This document shows, in pieces, positions 31,652 to 40,034 of a stretch of 64,000 nt of DNA. The position numbers were made by a program, and so were the translations under genes. The DNA comes from Xanthomonas sacchari. Its GTDB lineage: Bacteria; Pseudomonadota; Gammaproteobacteria; Xanthomonadales; Xanthomonadaceae. The stretch covers positions 2,852,001 through 2,916,000 of the forward strand of contig NZ_CP132343.1 in NCBI RefSeq assembly GCF_040529065.1, given 5' to 3'. The notes beneath the pieces are model-generated. The model was not told the origin of the DNA. It saw nothing but the letters and a program-made list of their open reading frames with translations, and ran no database searches. How positions within the stretch are numbered: the stretch's first letter is position 1; every line of letters begins with the position of its first letter.

Positions 31652-32422
31652 ATGAAACTTCGATTGCGACTGGCAGCGCTGTGTTGCCTGGCGTTCGCCT
31701 GCGTGTCCGCGGCGAACGCACAACCCCCGATCCGGGTCGCGGTCTATCGCGGCGCTGCCGGCTGCGACGACTGCTCGGAAACCGCCAAGGACGCGATCGA
31801 GGCACTGAGTCCGCAGTACAAGGTCGACATCATCGGCCCGAAGGAGGCGCAGGACGTCACGCCTGCCACCCTGCGCGGCTACGCGGTGTACGTGCAACCG
31901 GGCGGCGGGCAGGACATCCCCGCCGCGCTGCAGGCGATGGGCGAGCGCCGCATCGCCGCCATCCGCGACTTCGTCGCGCAGGGCGGCGGCTATCTGGGTC
32001 TGTGCATGGGCGCGTATCTCGCCGACGACACCAACATGGGCCTGATCGGCGACGATCTCGATGGCGAGGTCGGGCGGCCCGGCTTCCCTGTCACCACCAT
32101 CGATGAGGACGCCGTCGCGGTTCGCTGGAAGGGCCGGCCCGACAGCGTGTTCTTCCAGGACGGCCCCTACTTCCCGCAGAGCACCCAGGGTGGCTTCCGC
32201 GCGCTCGCCACCTACGCCAACGGCGACGTGGCCGCGGCTCGTTACAGCTTCGGCCGCGGCACCGTCGTCCTCAGCGGTCCGCATCCCGAGGCAGACCGGA
32301 GCTGGTTCGAAGAGGCCGAGATCCCGCTGGACAGGATGCCCAGGACGCCGGTGCTGCGAGCGCTGTTCGACGAATTCGCCACGCAGTCGTCACAGCCGTC
32401 ATCTGTCCGTGTCGACCGCTAG
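31652..32422 (+). CDS. Secreted BPL_N / glutamine-amidotransferase-like protein
   Basis: A 256-residue protein with a signal peptide (cleavage near ANA-Q). The rest follows the class I glutamine-amidotransferase-like fold found at the N-terminus of fungal biotin-protein ligase (BPL_N): RVAVYRGAAGC, YVQPGGGQDIP, and the nucleophile elbow GGGYLGLCMGAYLA with Cys118. RYSFGRGTVVLSGPHPEAD supplies the likely histidine. A secreted location is odd for this fold; its substrate is unknown. AGGAG precedes the start by 9 bases. It probably shares a transcript with the upstream four-cysteine protein. Confidence 0.78.
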   Translation: MKLRLRLAALCCLAFACVSAANAQPPIRVAVYRGAAGCDDCSETAKDAIEALSPQYKVDIIGPKEAQDVTPATLRGYAVYVQPGGGQDIPAALQAMGERRIAAIRDFVAQGGGYLGLCMGAYLADDTNMGLIGDDLDGEVGRPGFPVTTIDEDAVAVRWKGRPDSVFFQDGPYFPQSTQGGFRALATYANGDVAAARYSFGRGTVVLSGPHPEADRSWFEEAEIPLDRMPRTPVLRALFDEFATQSSQPSSVRVDR

Positions 32423-32447
32423 AGGCAAAAGCCCAAGACAGGCCGGA

Positions 32448-33752
32448 CTACTTCAACGCCCGCCAACTACGCCCGGCACGGAACGCGCGCTCCAGCGTCG
32501 CCGCGAGCAGGCAGATCTTCAGCGTCTGCGGCAGGATGCCCTCGCCCGGGTCGCTGGGCATGCCCAGCACCACCGACAGCTGATTGGCGATCGCCTGCCA
32601 CACCACCTGCGGGTGCGGGCCGATCAGCCGGGTCAGGCCCATCCAGGCCCAGGCCGAGGCCCAGTCCAGGGCGCGATACAGCACGATCAGCGTCACCAGC
32701 GCTGCCAGCCCGGTCGCACCGGCCAACTGCACGCTGTTGGCCGCAGCGCGATAGCGCGAGACGGTGCCGGCCCAGAAATGGCCGATGAAGTCGCGCAACC
32801 AGGTCGGCAGTTTCCGCCACAGTCCCAACGTACCGTCGACCTTGCTCGACCACTTGGCGGACGCATTCCATTCGGCATTGTGGACGTCGTAGCGGTAGAT
32901 CAGCGCGGCCAGCGCCAGCCAGACTACCGGCAACAAGGCCGAGAAGAAGATCGCCACCAGCGTGTCCGCCACGCCCGGCGGTGCCTGCTCTACCGCGCCC
33001 GGCAACGCGGCGTGGGCGACGCCGATCGGATGGCTGATGCCCTGCCAGAGTTGCTGGCCGAGATCGGCGATACGCAGATGCGCCAGCCAGCGGAATACCC
33101 CGCCCTTCCATTCGGTGAGCACGTACATGCCGACGAAGGTCCAGCCCGCCTCGCACAGCACGATCAGCACGTTCCATGCCGGATGCGCGCTACGCTGCTT
33201 CTGTTTTTTCGCAGCGCGCCGGATCAGCCACAGCAGTGCCACCGACGCCGCCAGCCACCAGCCGCCGGACACCTCGAACAGCGATCCCCGATAGGTCGGA
33301 TCGAAGGGATTGAACTGCCCCAACCCCTCGCGCCCATAGGCGCGGATGGTCTCGCCGAGGAAGCCCCAGGCGGCGTAGTAGGCGAAGAACGGCACCAGCG
33401 CCTGCGAGACGATCGTAGACAGGCGGCGCAAGCGCGCCCTACCCGCGTCCTCTGCTGCCGACGCGTCGGCCTGCTCGGCCAATGCCGCGCTGGCGATCCC
33501 CGGCAAGGCCGGGCGCAACGTTTCGAACAGCAGGACGAAGATCACCAGCTTGACCAGCACCACCAGGGTCAGCGACAGCAAGCCGGCGAGCCGGTTCTGA
33601 TAGCCGATCCACACCGCGGCTTGCAGCAGCAGTTCGTTGAGCAGTAAGCCGGCCAGCGCCACGGCGAGCAATTGCGGCAAGTAGCGAAACCACAGCCGCA
33701 GCGTGTCGCCGATCAACCCCAGCGACCCGCCGCGCAGCGCCATCTCGGTCAT
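32448..33752 (-). CDS. Polytopic membrane protein of unknown function
   Basis: A 434-residue protein with about seven or eight hydrophobic segments. The first two (LPQLLAVALAGLLLNELLL and the following segment) are near the N-terminus, the last (GLAALVTLIVLYRAL) near residue 365. An aromatic, charged region between (FNPFDPTYRGSLFEVSGGWWL) may be outside the membrane. No family was recognised. The ATG at 33752 overlaps the stop of the preceding gene (ATGA) and has GAGAGGAG upstream. It is the last of four coupled genes (35503 to 32448) and faces the amidotransferase-like gene tail to tail. Confidence 0.75.
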   Translation of the reverse strand: MTEMALRGGSLGLIGDTLRLWFRYLPQLLAVALAGLLLNELLLQAAVWIGYQNRLAGLLSLTLVVLVKLVIFVLLFETLRPALPGIASAALAEQADASAAEDAGRARLRRLSTIVSQALVPFFAYYAAWGFLGETIRAYGREGLGQFNPFDPTYRGSLFEVSGGWWLAASVALLWLIRRAAKKQKQRSAHPAWNVLIVLCEAGWTFVGMYVLTEWKGGVFRWLAHLRIADLGQQLWQGISHPIGVAHAALPGAVEQAPPGVADTLVAIFFSALLPVVWLALAALIYRYDVHNAEWNASAKWSSKVDGTLGLWRKLPTWLRDFIGHFWAGTVSRYRAAANSVQLAGATGLAALVTLIVLYRALDWASAWAWMGLTRLIGPHPQVVWQAIANQLSVVLGMPSDPGEGILPQTLKICLLAATLERAFRAGRSWRALK

Positions 33753-34339
33753 GGCGTTGCTCCTCTCGCGAAGCGCAGGTAACGCGGACGGCCGCCGCGC
33801 GTGCTCACGGTAAGTTGCAGCTGCGCGGCCACCGCACGCGGCACCAGGTAGTAGCCGTCGATCGCCAAGGGCACGCCCGGCTTGGCCGCGGACACGGCCA
33901 GCCCATCGCAGGCCACGCCGGGTGGTTCGCCCGGCTTGGCCAGGGCACGCTGCAACAGGTCCGGCACGGTGTCGATCGCAGCCCACGACCGGCCAGTGCC
34001 ATCGACCAGTTTGAGTGTGCAATCGCTCCATTGCGCGCCGGCGGCGCCAGGCACCAGCGACAGGCGCGTGCGCACGAAGGTGCGGTCGGCGGGCAGACCT
34101 GGCTCGAACGGCAGCACGTCGACCGATACCAGTCGGACGGCGGCACCGTCGTACTCCGTGGTCTGCGCCATCGCCCCCTCGACCGGTCGCCATTCGCGTG
34201 CATGCAGCAGTTCCCGCGCGTCGCGCCAGCCGGTCGCGGCCATCGTGAATGGCACCAGCACCAGCAGCGCCGCCAGGGCGAGCCAGCGCATGCGCCGCTC
34301 GGAAACGACCGGGGGCACGTCGCGGTCAGAGGCGTGCAT
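33749..34339 (-). CDS. Membrane-anchored hypothetical protein (operon gene 3)
   Basis: A 196-residue protein: short basic N-terminus, one membrane helix (MRWLALAALLVLVPFTMA), then an extracytoplasmic beta-rich domain (VRLVSVDVLPFEPGL, LSLVPGAAGAQWSDCTLKLVDGTGRSW, DGYYLVPRAVAAQLQL). Two cysteines could pair. The start at 34339 overlaps the preceding gene by 14 bases, and the stop overlaps the next gene by 4. No family was recognised. It shares its general plan (anchor plus small beta domain) with the two genes before it. Confidence 0.72.
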   Translation of the reverse strand: MHASDRDVPPVVSERRMRWLALAALLVLVPFTMAATGWRDARELLHAREWRPVEGAMAQTTEYDGAAVRLVSVDVLPFEPGLPADRTFVRTRLSLVPGAAGAQWSDCTLKLVDGTGRSWAAIDTVPDLLQRALAKPGEPPGVACDGLAVSAAKPGVPLAIDGYYLVPRAVAAQLQLTVSTRGGRPRYLRFARGATP

Positions 34340-34904
34340 GCAGCGCATCCAGATCGAGCACATCGGTGACCGCCGTTGCGGGTGGGAGCGGCGGATAGCG
34401 CACCTGCGCCTCGGCCGTCAGCTGCGGGTCGCGGTCTTCCGACAGCACCAGCGTGCCGCCCGCCGTGGCGAGTGCGGACGGCAGTTCGAACACCAGCACG
34501 TCCTTGCGCTCCAGCCCGGGCTGCAGTGTCTTGATCGACGACAGCACCGCGTCGCCCATCTCGGCGCGGCCGCTGGCGCGGTAGCGGCGGCCGTCGGGCG
34601 TCGCCCAGACCCGGCCATACACGCGTGCGGTCGCGCGCGCGACCTTCGATCGTACCGGCACCACCAACCACAGGCCGCCGCTGTCGCGCTGCTGCGCCGC
34701 GCCCGCTGCCTTGAAGCGGATGTTGCGCGCGAGCTGAGGTGTGCGGGCGTCGACGGCCAGATTGTCGGTCTGCACCCAGCCGCCCGGCGCGCCGGACACC
34801 GCGATCGGGCCGGTGATGCGCTCGTAGCGCGGCATCGTCCAGCGCATCCCGGCGAGCAGCACGAAGCCGAGCAGCAGGATCGCAATGGCGGCCAGTCGCT
34901 TCAC
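34326..34904 (-). CDS. Membrane-anchored hypothetical protein (operon gene 2)
   Basis: A 192-residue protein starting with GTG in a GTGA overlap with the preceding stop. N-terminal helix LAAIAILLLGFVLLAG, then an extracytoplasmic domain with TDNLAVDARTPQLARNI, RATARVYGRVWATPDGRRYRASG and KDVLVFELP. No cysteines, no recognised motif. The coupling to both neighbours suggests the four products form one membrane complex. Confidence 0.72.
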   Translation of the reverse strand: MKRLAAIAILLLGFVLLAGMRWTMPRYERITGPIAVSGAPGGWVQTDNLAVDARTPQLARNIRFKAAGAAQQRDSGGLWLVVPVRSKVARATARVYGRVWATPDGRRYRASGRAEMGDAVLSSIKTLQPGLERKDVLVFELPSALATAGGTLVLSEDRDPQLTAEAQVRYPPLPPATAVTDVLDLDALHARL

Positions 34905-35503
34905 GGCGCACCTGCCCCAGTGTTGGAACGCGACGCATCAAGCGGCAACTGCACGACCCCGACCGGATGCGGATCGGTCCATATCGGCTGCGCGTAGAGA
35001 TTGTCGAAGGCCTTGAAGGTCCTGGCGGTGATCTCGAAGCGCAGGCGGCCAGCCACCTGTTCCGTCGCCGGATAGGTCCAGACCAGCGCGATCTGTTCCG
35101 GCAGGCCCGGTTGCAGTTCGGTGGTCGCCGCGTGATCGCGCAAGAGGTAAGCAGTCGGCCGCGCATCGGCCCCGCGCGGCGGCGTCTTCAACGCCACCGC
35201 CTGCACCAGCGAGCCGCTGGTCTGCGTGGTGCGATTGGTGGCCTGCAGATACAGCACGATCGCCTTGCGCCCGTCGCGCGACACGGTGTCGCCATTCGGT
35301 AGCCGGTCACTGGTCTCCACGTGATCGAGGCGAAGTGACCACTCGCCCGCGGCGACGTCCTTCCCGGCCTGCAGCGCGGGCGGCACCGGCACGTCCTTGG
35401 CCTCGAACAAGCCGATGCCCCACCCCACCACGATCGCGGCAATGCCACCGATCCCGGCCAGCATCCGTGTCCGCCATTGCCCTAGAGACGCTTTGCTCGC
35501 CAA
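34901..35503 (-). CDS. Membrane-anchored hypothetical protein (operon gene 1)
   Basis: About 200 residues from a TTG at 35503 preceded by AAAAGGG. ATG 35464 is the alternative start; the open frame continues further upstream into the AT-rich segment, but that part has foreign composition. One membrane helix (MLAGIGGIAAIVVGWGIGLF) is followed by a beta domain: WSLRLDHVETSDRLPNGDTV, AIVLYLQATNRTTQTSGSLVQAV, LPEQIALVWTYP. The 'L..TNRT...GSL' pattern is like DUF4352-type extracellular immunoglobulin folds, an impression only. First of four coupled genes. Confidence 0.65.
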   Translation of the reverse strand: MASKASLGQWRTRMLAGIGGIAAIVVGWGIGLFEAKDVPVPPALQAGKDVAAGEWSLRLDHVETSDRLPNGDTVSRDGRKAIVLYLQATNRTTQTSGSLVQAVALKTPPRGADARPTAYLLRDHAATTELQPGLPEQIALVWTYPATEQVAGRLRFEITARTFKAFDNLYAQPIWTDPHPVGVVQLPLDASRSNTGAGAP

Positions 35504-35689
35504 ACCGGGTGACCCTTTTGGAAGCTCGGCCGGACGGTAGCACCGGGTTGCAAAAAAATGCAACATCAAGCGAAATACGGTGTAGCACCGCACTGGAAAG
35601 TCAGATTCAGAACGAGCGATCAAGCTTCGTACAACGTAATCGCTAAGGTTGGTTAAGAATTCCCAAATGCGACTTCCAGAGGATGGAAA

Positions 35690-38041
35690 ATGAGTTCTGA
35701 AAATAATCCATTGATCGGCAACATCTACGAGATAGTCATAAAGACAGACACGAACGACGGGCGATTCGAGTCTTTCGCTTGCGGGGTCGTTTCTCAACTT
35801 GAAGGAAACGGTTCTATCCTTACTACTAGACCGAAATGGGACCTAGGACGTGACGGCGTAGGGTTCGGCGCAAGTAAAGGTATATTTGTCTGTGCCAGCC
35901 TACGAGATGACGTTGACGCAAAAGCGTTATCAGACATGTCTCGCCTGGAAGATAAAACGTGTGGAATCAAGAAAGTTTACTTCTGCTCCAGTCAGCTCTT
36001 AACGGAACATGCTCGGAATAAAATCACATCAGCACTCATACAGGAATACGGCAGCACATATGAATATGAAGTACTTGGTGCGCACCAACTTAGAGAGCTA
36101 AGCCTTCGAGATCCAGATTTAATAAAGACAAAATACGCCGCAGAAATAGCAAATTGTAAAGCAGCGATCGAACCGGAGGATGATGACTCCGCCGAAACAG
36201 CGGGACTTCGACTTGCTCTCATGACATCGGGAGCAGAGAATTCTCTAGAAATTCGCTCTTCAATCTATGCCGCAGCCATTCTTGATTCACTAAATGAATC
36301 AAAAAAAACCATACGAACGATCTGCAACTCAATTTCACAGCGACTTCGTCTCCCAGGAACTCTCGACGAAAAAACACTCGCACCTTATCTTGGCCCAATG
36401 GCTGCAGAAGGACTCATCGAGCTACACCGGCACGACCGTGAAAAGAGCAAAGACATATACGCTATAACACAATTAGGCATCGACAGACTGACTGAAAGAG
36501 AGACATCTGCGGCTCAAAGCCTGATGGAGGGGCGCTCCAAAATTCAAATAGCGCTCGAAACAGCCATCGGAATGAAAATGCTTCCTGACGCCTTCGCTTC
36601 TATATGGAATGTTTTCGAAGAAAAGCTCGCATATGCCCTTTATGTACGCGGAGCCTCAGTAGTTGCGGAGATTAGCGCATTAATTGAACCAAATTCATCT
36701 AGTGGCAACGATGTTATCGAGCCATTAAGCTTTGTTGAGGATATCGCCGAAGCAGTTTCAGCTGTAGCAGGACATCAACAGCGTCAAGCCGAGATCCAGC
36801 AGGCGATCAAGGATCTCTTCTCGAACAGAGTCGGCCCAGCAGCCGATTGGCTGGTGCAGGTTTGCGCGGGTTTTATCGCAGCATGCACTATGGGGTTAGA
36901 GCACAAAAGCGCAAATGCTATTGGCAAGCTACTTGCTCGAACGACAATTGTACTGGACTCTGACGTCGTTTTATCTTTACTGGGAGAAGGTGAGCCGGAT
37001 CATGATGCAGTCCAGACTATAGTCAAGCATTGGAAAAAAAACAAAGGCACAATTCTTGTTGCTGAGCCTGTACTGCAGGAACTTGCTCATCATGCATGGA
37101 TTGCGGATAACGATTACCAAGAAGTAAAACACTTCCTACCTGGAACTCCTCAAGATCGACTCAATTCTATTGACAATGTGTTCGTTCGATCATTCGCAGA
37201 GATTCTAAGTCGAAACGGCATTCGCAGAGATGGCTGGAGATCCTATTACCTCCACTTTGCAGGCAAGAACAAGGATGACTATACCTCCATCCAGCAAACT
37301 CTGTCCGCCGACTATTCGATTCTCCGACTTCCGGGAAGGTCATCGGTTCAGGGCGACCTCGCGCAGCAGGTCTATAAGTACTCTCTAGACCTCTTTGAAA
37401 AAAGCCAGTTGAGAGTTACAAAAATAATGCGCGATAAAGCCGCCCGCGACTCGGAGCTATATACAGCATTTGTGAATTACGTTAATTCCGTAAGAGATGC
37501 TGATCCAGGCGCCTCCTGTTTATTGGTCAGTTCGGGCCGACGTCTGTCACAAGTTGAGGATCATTTCAAAGAGACCGGCGAACGTCAAATGATCATTTCT
37601 GTGCAAAGCACTCTCTTACTTGTCTCGCTCCTACCCAATCTTGCATTAGGACTTTCACAAATGAAAGCATTCCTATTTGATGAACATCGCCATAGATTTA
37701 CTACGGGATTCGAGCGGAAGCTCATCCGCATTGTGCGATCAAGCCGCGAATTGGAGATGCCGTGGGCAAAGCGCGGTATACTGATGCGCAATGTCAGAGA
37801 TCGCCTCCTTACTAATGCGAAGCAGGAAGGACGCCCTCGAGCCGAGCAACACATGGATACGTTGGAGAGAGATGCGCTGAAGGAAGACAGTAGAGATTTG
37901 ACCGTCCAGATATTGAGAGACTCTTTAGACGCACTAGCCATTGATACACGCCAAGATAAGCAGATCCGAGAGCTTAAAAGAGAAAATGAACGCCTAGAAG
38001 AAGAAATCAAAAAACTCCGCAAGTTTCGAGAAAAAAAATAG
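35690..38041 (+). CDS. AT-rich multidomain protein, putative nuclease-type defence protein
   Basis: A 783-residue protein with no recognised family. Residues 10-160 look like a diverged restriction-endonuclease/Mrr fold: FESFACGVVSQL, WDLGRDGVGFG (Asp51, Asp55), GIFVCASL where Q-x-K would be expected but Ala69 replaces Lys, then KKVYFCSSQLLTEHARNKI and LGAHQLRELS. Residues 190-270 resemble a winged helix ending YAITQLGIDRLTE. Residues 418-475 look PIN-like: TIVLDSDVVLSLL (Asp423, Asp425) and VLQELAHHAW (Glu464), with a later LLVSSGRRLS strand at 611-620. The tail (755-783) is a charged coiled coil. AGAGGA sits 6 bases before the ATG. Sampled GC is about 40-55 percent, far below neighbours. 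Domain calls are by eye. Confidence 0.7.
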   Translation: MSSENNPLIGNIYEIVIKTDTNDGRFESFACGVVSQLEGNGSILTTRPKWDLGRDGVGFGASKGIFVCASLRDDVDAKALSDMSRLEDKTCGIKKVYFCSSQLLTEHARNKITSALIQEYGSTYEYEVLGAHQLRELSLRDPDLIKTKYAAEIANCKAAIEPEDDDSAETAGLRLALMTSGAENSLEIRSSIYAAAILDSLNESKKTIRTICNSISQRLRLPGTLDEKTLAPYLGPMAAEGLIELHRHDREKSKDIYAITQLGIDRLTERETSAAQSLMEGRSKIQIALETAIGMKMLPDAFASIWNVFEEKLAYALYVRGASVVAEISALIEPNSSSGNDVIEPLSFVEDIAEAVSAVAGHQQRQAEIQQAIKDLFSNRVGPAADWLVQVCAGFIAACTMGLEHKSANAIGKLLARTTIVLDSDVVLSLLGEGEPDHDAVQTIVKHWKKNKGTILVAEPVLQELAHHAWIADNDYQEVKHFLPGTPQDRLNSIDNVFVRSFAEILSRNGIRRDGWRSYYLHFAGKNKDDYTSIQQTLSADYSILRLPGRSSVQGDLAQQVYKYSLDLFEKSQLRVTKIMRDKAARDSELYTAFVNYVNSVRDADPGASCLLVSSGRRLSQVEDHFKETGERQMIISVQSTLLLVSLLPNLALGLSQMKAFLFDEHRHRFTTGFERKLIRIVRSSRELEMPWAKRGILMRNVRDRLLTNAKQEGRPRAEQHMDTLERDALKEDSRDLTVQILRDSLDALAIDTRQDKQIRELKRENERLEEEIKKLRKFREKK

Positions 38042-38356
38042 CTCACAGCAAACTACAGCAAGCATATGTAGCGGCAAAACTCACTCATCGCTTCCAGACA
38101 TAATTAAGCAGAGCCCCAACCATGCCACTTAAGCATTCTCATGCACATTTAAAACTCTAAATATAGAGAGCGACAATAGGGGCACGCCGCTTAAATGAAA
38201 CGCAAGGCATTCAAACGACCAAAAGCGACGTACCCACCAGCCAGACCAGTAATAAAAACTTAAATCAGACGCCCGCAGCATCCATATCCACTCTAGATAT
38301 TTGCCTAGAGCCCAGAAATAAAAATTTCATAACATCAATCAAATTTATATTAAGAA
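38042..38356. other. AT-rich intergenic tail of the inserted segment
   Basis: About 315 bases, low in GC, with no ribosome site, open frame or terminator of note. It runs directly into the 3' end of the tRNA-Ser gene. No copy of the tRNA 3' end was found at the other side of the AT-rich segment. Confidence 0.6.
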
Positions 38357-38446
38357 TGGCGGAGAGAGTGGGATTCGAACCCACGGAAGGTTTGACCCTT
38401 CGCCGGTTTTCAAGACCGGTGCCTTAAACCGCTCGGCCATCTCTCC
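38357..38446 (-). tRNA. tRNA-Ser (UGA)
   Basis: A 90-base class II tRNA read leftward: acceptor GGAGAGA pairing with TCTCTCC, D-arm GCCGAGCGG, anticodon loop CTTGAAA with anticodon TGA, a long variable arm, T-arm GGGTTCGAATCCC, and encoded GCCA end. The anticodon and long variable arm identify serine. Its 3' end faces the AT-rich segment, a classic integration position. Confidence 0.95.
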
Positions 38447-38659
38447 GTTTGCGAACGCGGCGGTACTGCGGAAGAGCGTCGCAGCCGCTTGAAGCACAAC
38501 GCCGCGGAAGCGCGACGCTGCAGTGCCTGTCCAGCCTGAAGCAATCGGTGCCGATGACGGCACCACATGAACCCCGAACCCAGGACCACCAGCACGGGCG
38601 CGCATTTTCGCACGCCCGCGGCGGTTTTGCTCGACCGACGTGCGCGGCCGGCGTCGCGA

Positions 38660-39649
38660 TCAACCCGCCTCGACCGCCATCGCGCCCAGGGTCGAGTGAC
38701 GAGCCTTGGTGCGTTCGGGACAGTTGCCGCCACAGTCCAGGCGCGAGGCTTCGATCTGGCGCGGCAGGTGTTCGGCGAGGAAGTCGATGAACACGCGCAC
38801 CGCCGGCAGCAGGCCGCGGCGCGAGGCGAACACGGCATGGCAGATGCCCTGCGGCAGCGACCATTCCGGCAGCACCACTTCCAGTTCGCCGTTGCGCACC
38901 GCTTCGGCGCAGACGGTCTCGGGCAGCAGGGTGATGCCGAAGCCGTCCTTGACCATCGACTGCAGCAGCGGGAAGTCGAAGCCCGCCACGCGCGGCTGCA
39001 GGTCGACGCGGCGCACTTCGCCGGCCGGGCCGTGCAGTTCCCAGCGCTGCCGCGCCTCGTCCTCGCTGATGCTGAGGGTGACGTGCGAGGTCAATTCCTC
39101 GGGATCCTTGGGACGGCCGGCGCGGTCCAGGTACTTGGGGCTGGCGACCAGCAGTTCCTGGACCTGGCCGAAGCTGCGCATCACCAGGCTGCCGTCGTCG
39201 TCCAGGCGAGAGCGCACGCGCAGGGCGACATCGTAGCCTTCGTTGATGATGTCGACGCGGCGGTTGCTGATGTTCAGTTGCAGCCGCACCTTGGGGTACT
39301 GGTCCAGGAACATCGGCAGCAGCTTGGGCAACTGCATCTGCGCCAGCGACACCGGCACGCTGACCCGCACCAGCCCGCGCGGCTCGGCGCTGAGCCGGTC
39401 GACCACTTCGCGTGCGGCCTGCGCCTCGGCCAGCATGGTCTGGGCGTGGCGATGCACGCTCATGCCCAGGTCGGTGACGGCGAAACGGCGCGTGGAGCGC
39501 TGCAGCAGACGCACGCCCAGGTCGCTCTCCAGCTGGCTGATGCGGCGGCTCAGGCGCGACTTGGGGATGCCCAGGGCGCGTTCGGCGGCGGCGAAGCCGC
39601 CGTGGTCGACCACCATGGCGAAGTAGTACAGATCGTTGAGGTCGTGCAT
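38660..39649 (-). CDS. LysR-family transcriptional regulator
   Basis: A 329-residue regulator: N-terminal winged helix-turn-helix (LNDLYYFAMVVDHGGFAAAERALGIPKSRLSRRISQLE pattern), then a periplasmic-binding-protein-like effector domain (PRGLVRVSVPVSLAQ, GFGITLLPETV). The Pro-Lys-Ser recognition start and LSAEPRG linker place it with the CrgA/DsdC-like group. The last 35 or so residues, with Cys and Arg (RLDCGGNCPERTKARHS), are a short extension. Target unknown; no adjacent divergent gene suggests one. Confidence 0.9.
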   Translation of the reverse strand: MHDLNDLYYFAMVVDHGGFAAAERALGIPKSRLSRRISQLESDLGVRLLQRSTRRFAVTDLGMSVHRHAQTMLAEAQAAREVVDRLSAEPRGLVRVSVPVSLAQMQLPKLLPMFLDQYPKVRLQLNISNRRVDIINEGYDVALRVRSRLDDDGSLVMRSFGQVQELLVASPKYLDRAGRPKDPEELTSHVTLSISEDEARQRWELHGPAGEVRRVDLQPRVAGFDFPLLQSMVKDGFGITLLPETVCAEAVRNGELEVVLPEWSLPQGICHAVFASRRGLLPAVRVFIDFLAEHLPRQIEASRLDCGGNCPERTKARHSTLGAMAVEAG

Positions 39650-40034
39650 GTTCTTTCGATATTTAGAACGATGGGGACAATCGGATCCGGTTCATTCTAC
39701 TCCTACAACGATTTGCGCTGCAGGGACGCCGGTCGCGCTCGCGCGGTGGCTCAGGCACGGATAGAGACGGACGCAGGGTAACCCCGGCTTGGCTAGCACG
39801 AAGTGATGGGGACGGGAGTTCGGCGCACGCGGAACGTCGCTGCGGCGAGTGCTGCAGCGGGCAATGCATGCGAACGCCCTGCCCCGTCCGGGTCGAATAC
39901 CCACTTGTGGCGCAAGGCGGTGCACTGCCCGCATCAGGACAATTTGCCTGAGCGCAAGGACGGACAGGGGTGCGTCGCCGCAGCAACGGCGACGCGAGGC
40001 GCGCCCGGGGCGGATGCCCCGGGCTGGACGGCAA
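39650..40034. other. Intergenic region with two hairpins after serS
   Basis: About 385 bases without a convincing gene. Two perfect stem-loops sit just past the serS stop: GCGTCGCCG/CGGCGACGC (39972-39995, 6-base loop) and GCCCGGGG/CCCCGGGC (40003-40024, 6-base loop). Neither has a T tract in the serS direction, so they may stabilise the mRNA 3' end rather than terminate on their own. Confidence 0.55.

What the first reader, a model, noticed from the sequence alone, without database searches (positions are those of the whole stretch)
35690..38041. Unrecognised AT-rich 783-residue protein with two nuclease-like regions and a winged helix
Seen: one large, intact, well-started gene with GC of about 40-55 percent in sampled lines, in a chromosome of about two-thirds GC. 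By eye it has a diverged Mrr/endonuclease-like N-terminus in which the expected Q-x-K is VCA (Ala69), a winged helix near 190-270, a PIN-like block near 418-475 with Asp423, Asp425 and Glu464, a strand LLVSSGRRLS where PIN domains usually have another Asp, and a C-terminal coiled coil. A single-gene insert of this size with such a mix looks like a stand-alone antiviral or toxin-type effector, possibly with a degenerate sensing nuclease fold and an active PIN fold. I do not recognise a named defence system that matches.
Basis: partly seen in the sequence, partly recalled or inferred. Interest (0 to 1): 0.8.

Follow-up and report, generated by a model that had tools for sequence, protein, structure and literature searches.

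The report
Rare single-gene nuclease-fold defence candidate
A foreign-looking gene beside a bacterial tRNA encodes a large, rarely seen protein that joins a DNA-cutting-like fold, a DNA-binding winged helix and an RNA-cutting (PIN) fold, and it sits in a chromosomal slot where some related bacteria keep virus-defence genes, so it is a candidate for an unstudied one-gene defence system.

Summary
An intact 783-residue ORF (35690-38041, +; 46.7% GC) lies in DNA of about 70% GC. It is the only plausible gene in a 2.8-kb insert (about 35565-38353) between a conserved gene block and the 3' end of tRNA-Ser(UGA). In sister species this tRNA slot holds other cargo, including PARIS (AriA+AriB) and PADLOC Hp1-Hp2-Hp3. 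No library gave a significant sequence match. A degenerate motif search of the 84,980-species collection found two full-length relatives: Rugamonas rivuli (42% identity) and a Chloroflexi MAG (27%). Both are low-GC genes at unrelated places, so this does not look like a core gene. A three-sequence AlphaFold2 model (mean pLDDT 66) matches a PadR-like winged helix (about 181-291) and a VapC-type PIN fold (414-653) broken by a helical insertion of about 85-95 residues. The N-terminus only resembles PD-(D/E)XK: classical E/QxK is replaced by C-A-[ST]-L-R-x-D-[VI]-D-A-K, conserved in all three. PIN acids D423, D425, E464, D582 and D587 are invariant; the usual last Asp is Ser-Ser. Best reading: a stand-alone sensor-plus-RNase defence effector. 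Function is untested.

The parts
35565..38353 (.). Foreign insert (about 2.8 kb, 46% GC) between the conserved gene block ending near 35564 and the tRNA-Ser 3' end
   Evidence: blastn of window 32000-40000 against 19 sister-species regions, junction alignment of 5 sequences, GC
35690..38041 (+). 783-aa protein: REase-like / PadR-type winged helix / helical / PIN with insertion / C-terminal helices
35762..36079 (+). Residues 25-130: PD-(D/E)XK-like alpha-beta region; invariant E27, D51, D55 and C68-A69-[ST]70-L71-R72-x-D74-[VI]75-D76-A77-K78 in place of E/QxK
   Evidence: secondary structure of the model, conservation in 3 of 3, weak PADLOC hits of the homologues' N-termini to Aga_REase-TIR (E 0.0021) and PDC-S73 (E 0.011); the window protein's own N-terminus hits neither
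36236..36562 (+). Residues 183-291: PadR/MarR-like winged helix-turn-helix
36929..37648 (+). Residues 414-653: VapC-type PIN fold; D423, D425, E464, D582, D587 invariant; S614-S615 where a fourth Asp is usual; residues about 480-575 are a helical insertion
37946..38035 (+). Residues 753-782: C-terminal single helix, possible coiled coil
   Evidence: weak DivIC/SlyX matches
38357..38446 (-). tRNA-Ser (UGA); the insert lies at its 3' side
   Evidence: ARAGORN

Best explanation
A mobile, stand-alone defence effector of the abortive-infection type. SHOWN: it is a foreign single-gene insert in a variable tRNA slot; it belongs to a family found here in three distant bacteria with the same full-length layout; a PadR-like winged helix and a VapC-type PIN fold are predicted. 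INFERRED: the N-terminal PD-(D/E)XK-like domain, with the winged helix, recognises invader nucleic acid or an infection-linked molecule; the winged helix and C-terminal helices hold a dimer; sensing releases the PIN domain (metal held by D423/D425, E464, D582/D587) to cut RNA, which stops translation and phage growth.
For: GC outlier and single-gene insert. The same tRNA slot in sister species holds PARIS (AriA E 2.8e-29, AriB E 1.8e-17), Hp1-Hp2-Hp3 (E 3.6e-58, 5.5e-40, 5.2e-12) and a weak PDC-M34A/DUF5343 gene (E 7.4e-5). Two full-length relatives in other groups, with GC 0.49 and 0.45 against 0.56-0.64 in the adjacent flanks; the Rugamonas one also lies on the 3' side of a tRNA gene, tRNA-Thr. 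The first PIN segment, 416-475, is the most conserved part (62, 45 and 48% pairwise) and the PIN acids named are invariant in 3 of 3. PIN and winged-helix folds. N-terminal similarity of one relative to PADLOC's Aga_REase-TIR model (that this is an Argonaute-associated effector is recalled). PARIS is described as an abortive-infection system, and P4 and P2 hotspots as averaging 2.6 and 3.2 kb, in passages of PMC9122126.
Against: No PADLOC match of the protein itself. No defence genes were recognised near the homologues (mostly by eye). Only three members are known, so conservation is a weak test; the second PIN segment, 576-640, is only 43, 20 and 29% identical. The PIN fold lacks the usual last Asp. 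In L052, L053 and L058 the slot seems to hold ordinary genes, and only 10 chosen slot proteins were scanned. The Rugamonas gene's GC contrast is modest. Nothing on activity was or could be tested.
Confidence: 0.5

Rival explanations
1. A stand-alone type-IV-like restriction nuclease: the N-terminal PD-(D/E)XK fold is active with a moved lysine (K78), the winged helix reads modified or foreign DNA, and the PIN domain is a second DNA or RNA nuclease.
For: E27, D51, D55 and K78 are invariant in 3 of 3 and the 68-78 motif is conserved. Winged-helix/endonuclease fusions that act on modified DNA exist (PMC11037411, title and start of abstract seen in the listing).
Against: The classical lysine position is Ala69 in all three. 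Residues 47-62 are poorly modelled and only two strands precede the helix in the model, so the site geometry cannot be judged. The first PIN segment is more conserved than the N-terminus.
Confidence: 0.2
2. A mobile-element or stress RNA-processing/regulatory protein with no defence role: a PadR-like regulator fused to a PIN RNase that controls its own or host transcripts.
For: Most of the 50 listed structural matches are winged-helix transcription regulators; no defence genes were recognised near the homologues.
Against: In the window it comes alone, with no other mobile-element gene in the insert, in a slot that in two sister species carries defence systems; a REase-like N-terminus is unusual for a regulator (recalled).
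Confidence: 0.2
3. A one-protein toxin-antitoxin-like addiction cassette: a VapC-like PIN with its repressor fused in the same chain.
For: VapC proteins are among the solved PIN folds matched; no antitoxin-sized ORF in the gene-free part of the insert.
Against: The winged helix is PadR-like rather than a small VapB-type antitoxin (recalled comparison); a REase-like domain has no place in this reading.
Confidence: 0.1

Closest known systems
VapC toxins (PIN domain, VapBC)
   Different: Helical insertion of about 85-95 residues, Ser-Ser at the place of a fourth Asp, no antitoxin gene seen, embedded in a 783-aa protein
PadR-family winged helix regulators
   Different: Not a free regulator; part of a multidomain protein with nuclease-like folds
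REase domain of REase-TIR proteins (PADLOC Aga_REase-TIR-PNTD1-PNTD2)
   Same: N-terminus of the Chloroflexi relative matches near the N-terminus of that model (17-114 to 9-105, E 0.0021)
   Different: The window protein's own N-terminus does not hit it; downstream domains differ; E/QxK replaced
PADLOC candidate PDC-S73
   Same: Single-gene candidate (model of 752 positions), matched on the diagonal by the Rugamonas N-terminus (89-150 to 80-139, E 0.011 as a fragment, 0.057 whole)
   Different: Only about 60 residues match, and neither the window protein nor the Chloroflexi one hits it
PARIS (AriA/AriB)
   Same: Occupies the same tRNA slot in a sister species; compact cargo of similar size
   Different: Two genes, AAA ATPase plus DUF4435; no sequence relation

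Membership tests
PIN-domain nuclease superfamily | PIN alpha/beta fold | tested here: met
PIN-domain nuclease superfamily | Acidic positions (Asp, Glu, Asp) conserved (motif recalled) | tested here: met
   D423, D425, E464, D582, D587 invariant in 3 of 3
PIN-domain nuclease superfamily | Fourth acidic residue after the late strand (recalled as usual, not universal) | tested here: not met
   S614-S615 in 3 of 3
PIN-domain nuclease superfamily | Metal-dependent RNase activity | not testable with these tools
   needs protein
VapBC toxin-antitoxin | Adjacent small antitoxin gene | tested here: not met
   upstream gap in the insert is only about 125 bp; downstream only ORFs of 27, 39 and 50 aa, and one of 86 aa over the tRNA
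PD-(D/E)XK (Mrr-like) nucleases | Alpha-beta core topology | tested here: inconclusive
   H25-37 E43-45 E65-70 H75-89 E95-100 H106-120 E125-129 is compatible though only two strands precede the helix; the 50 rows shown were filled by other domains; Foldseek itself could not be run
PD-(D/E)XK (Mrr-like) nucleases | E/QxK catalytic motif | tested here: not met
   [VL]-C-A in 3 of 3; K78 invariant nearby
PadR-like winged helix | Winged-helix fold of the PadR/MarR type | tested here: met
Known anti-phage systems in PADLOC-DB 2.0.0 | Profile match of the protein | tested here: not met
   0 families at E up to 5 for the window protein
Known anti-phage systems in PADLOC-DB 2.0.0 | Protection against phage | not testable with these tools
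   needs plaque assays

The most novel reading that the evidence does not exclude
A new family of one-protein antiviral effectors in which a PD-(D/E)XK fold has lost its cutting lysine and, with a PadR-type winged helix, has become the invader sensor that switches on a split, insertion-bearing PIN RNase in the same chain.
Probability: 0.3. Interest if true: 0.75.

Novelty: new variant of a known kind. Interest (0 to 1): 0.55.

Why it matters
If true, it would be a compact one-gene defence system with sensing and killing in a single chain, built from familiar folds in an arrangement that the libraries searched here do not name. The conserved C-A-[ST]-L-R-x-D-[VI]-D-A-K motif would be a direct handle on how a nuclease fold is turned into a sensor or re-armed with a moved lysine. 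It also marks a tRNA-Ser slot in this genus as a place to look for further defence genes.

Tried and rejected
Sequence searches that found nothing usable for the window protein: Pfam, PADLOC, NCBIfam, PHROGs (best E 0.025, none, 0.061, 0.03), PDB sequences (the alignment), plasmids and phages by tblastn (at E up to 10 only scraps; N-terminal and PIN pieces in plasmids), both relatives in plasmids and the Chloroflexi one in phages, genome contigs and viral contigs by peptide patterns (and the alignment, 78), and two further DNA patterns in viral contigs. NCBIfam on the relatives gave nothing of note. The E. coli and metagenome collections were not searched.

Whole-genome searches: the protein matched only its own genome in 60 and 369 genomes at E up to 0.001 and in 397 at E up to 0.01. 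In 398 phylum genomes at E up to 0.1 it matched 17, own included; the other 16 (10.7-14.1 bits) are no more than chance would give and were dropped. N-terminal and PIN pieces in 249 genomes each gave 1 and 4 further weak matches. I looked at two of these proteins: one reads as a chemotaxis receptor, one starts like a TIR protein, both by eye. The alignment profile in 126 genomes of the Chloroflexi relative's phylum and 121 of the Rugamonas family found only the two known members. Samples overlap between calls, so the numbers must not be added.

Of 15 genome loci hit by the motif pattern, 2 are relatives; of the other 13, five read as one beta-ketoacyl-synthase-like family (name recalled, by eye) and eight look like chance. 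Of the 2 viral hits of that pattern, L072 has a stop right after the motif in that frame; L073 carries nearly the same proteins by ORF list.

A tRNA-derived repeat flanking the insert was looked for and not found, and the insert has no integrase gene. Promoter and terminator scans were at chance level. The single-sequence fold was poor (pLDDT 38.9) and not used. The absence of REase chains from the 50 rows is not evidence. Paper searches for this architecture: 46, 98 and 101 gave no paper; one listed one (Shield) and 102 listed ten of 18, of which I saw only the listings, so I claim no more than that none of the titles names it.

Full report
WHAT IS THERE. The window holds an intact ORF of 783 aa at 35690-38041 (+). 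Its GC is 0.467; 566 overlapping windows of the same length outside the insert average 0.698 with sd 0.020 and minimum 0.649. A tRNA-Ser(UGA) lies at 38357-38446 on the minus strand, so the ORF is on the tRNA's 3' side.

THE INSERT. A gene on the right (38660-39649) was used to fetch the same place in the 19 other held species of the genus. All 19 show the right flank and a match over the tRNA, in L060 and L068 in pieces; the left flank (32443-35550) was found within the fetched 9-10 kb in 6 of 19 (L050, L052, L053, L054, L055, L058). Between the flanks these six hold 0.9 to 2.7 kb of other DNA. At E up to 1e-5 none of the 19 shows DNA similarity inside the window's insert (35565-38353), except that one match (L059) starts 29 bases inside its right end, at 38325. 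No tRNA-derived repeat marks the insert. Downstream of the ORF the other ORFs of 25 aa or more are 27, 39 and 50 aa, an 86-aa one running over the tRNA and a 153-aa frame antisense to the gene.

WHAT SISTER SPECIES KEEP THERE. I listed ORFs in 8 of the 19 and scanned 10 chosen proteins from five of them. L054: AriA (E 2.8e-29) and AriB (1.8e-17), that is PARIS. L051: Hp1, Hp2, Hp3 (3.6e-58, 5.5e-40, 5.2e-12) near a resolvase-like gene; only its right flank was seen. L055: a DUF5343-like gene with a weak PDC-M34A hit (7.4e-5). L064: an N6-methylase gene, with transposase-like ORFs by eye (right flank only). L050: one 250-aa gene with an R-x4-H motif that looks HEPN-like to my eye but hits nothing in Pfam or PADLOC. 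L052, L053 and L058 show genes that look ordinary and were not scanned. So two of these eight places carry recognised defence systems; there is no random-locus control.

RELATIVES. The protein has no relatives that the ordinary searches found (see Tried and rejected). A degenerate pattern for W-D-x-G-R-D-G followed by S-x3-D-x3-K, scanned over the 84,980-species collection, gave 15 loci, of which 2 encode full-length relatives: Rugamonas rivuli (650 bits) and a Chloroflexi MAG (299 bits). They are 42% and 27% identical to the window protein. GC of the genes is 0.49 against 0.56 and 0.59 in the flanks of the 8-kb locus, and 0.45 against 0.64 and 0.59. On one side of the Rugamonas gene, about 620 bp away and with a 125-aa ORF between, is tRNA-Thr(CGT), again with the gene on the tRNA's 3' side. 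About 18 kb on either side of each gene, read by eye from ORF lists, shows metabolic and other ordinary genes and no recognised defence system; 6 flanking proteins scanned with PADLOC gave only weak hits, all of one HTH gene (best E 0.0095).

ACTIVE SITES. In 3 of 3: E27, D51, D55, C68, A69, R72, D74, D76, K78 in the N-terminus; D423, D425, E464, D582, K583, R586, D587, S614, S615 in the PIN part. Pairwise identity by segment: 416-475 62, 45, 48%; N-terminus 49, 33, 36%; late PIN segment 576-640 43, 20, 29%; PIN insertion 33, 23, 30%; winged helix 28, 19, 27%. A conserved first PIN segment with a fast-changing winged helix would fit a variable sensing surface; that is inference from three sequences.

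MECHANISM. Shown: foreign single-gene cargo, slot, family layout, two predicted folds. Inferred: sensing by the N-terminal part and winged helix, RNA cutting by the PIN part, growth arrest. The missing lysine can mean a pure binding domain or a moved lysine (K78); the model cannot decide.

NOVELTY. Every fold is known; the combination is not named by Pfam, PADLOC, NCBIfam, PHROGs or PDB as searched here, nor in the paper listings seen. I file it as a new variant of a known kind (stand-alone multidomain nuclease effectors), not as a member of VapBC, Mrr, PARIS or PDC-S73. That the genus may be Xanthomonas or a close relative is only my guess from genome size and GC, and no argument rests on it.

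Noticed in passing
L054:7301-9614 (sister species G005, same tRNA-Ser slot): A PARIS system (AriA and AriB) fills the slot as a 2.7-kb insert of 48% GC.
   Followed up: partly
L051:2204-7215 (sister species G008, same tRNA-Ser): Hp1-Hp2-Hp3 genes with a pentapeptide-repeat gene, a nucleotidyltransferase-like gene and a resolvase-like gene (the last by eye).
   Followed up: partly
L050:1395-2147 (sister species G013, same slot): Lone 250-aa gene with an R-x4-H (RNDVVH) motif, HEPN-like by eye, no hit in PADLOC or Pfam and nothing of note in NCBIfam: another possible single-gene effector.
   Followed up: partly
L055:2291-3169 (sister species G011, same slot): DUF5343-like gene with a weak PDC-M34A hit, next to a short ORF that looks HNH-like by eye.
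   Followed up: partly
L074:2100-2441 (Rugamonas): XRE-type HTH gene (by eye) downstream of the homologue, weak PDC-M69A hit (E 0.0095).
   Followed up: no
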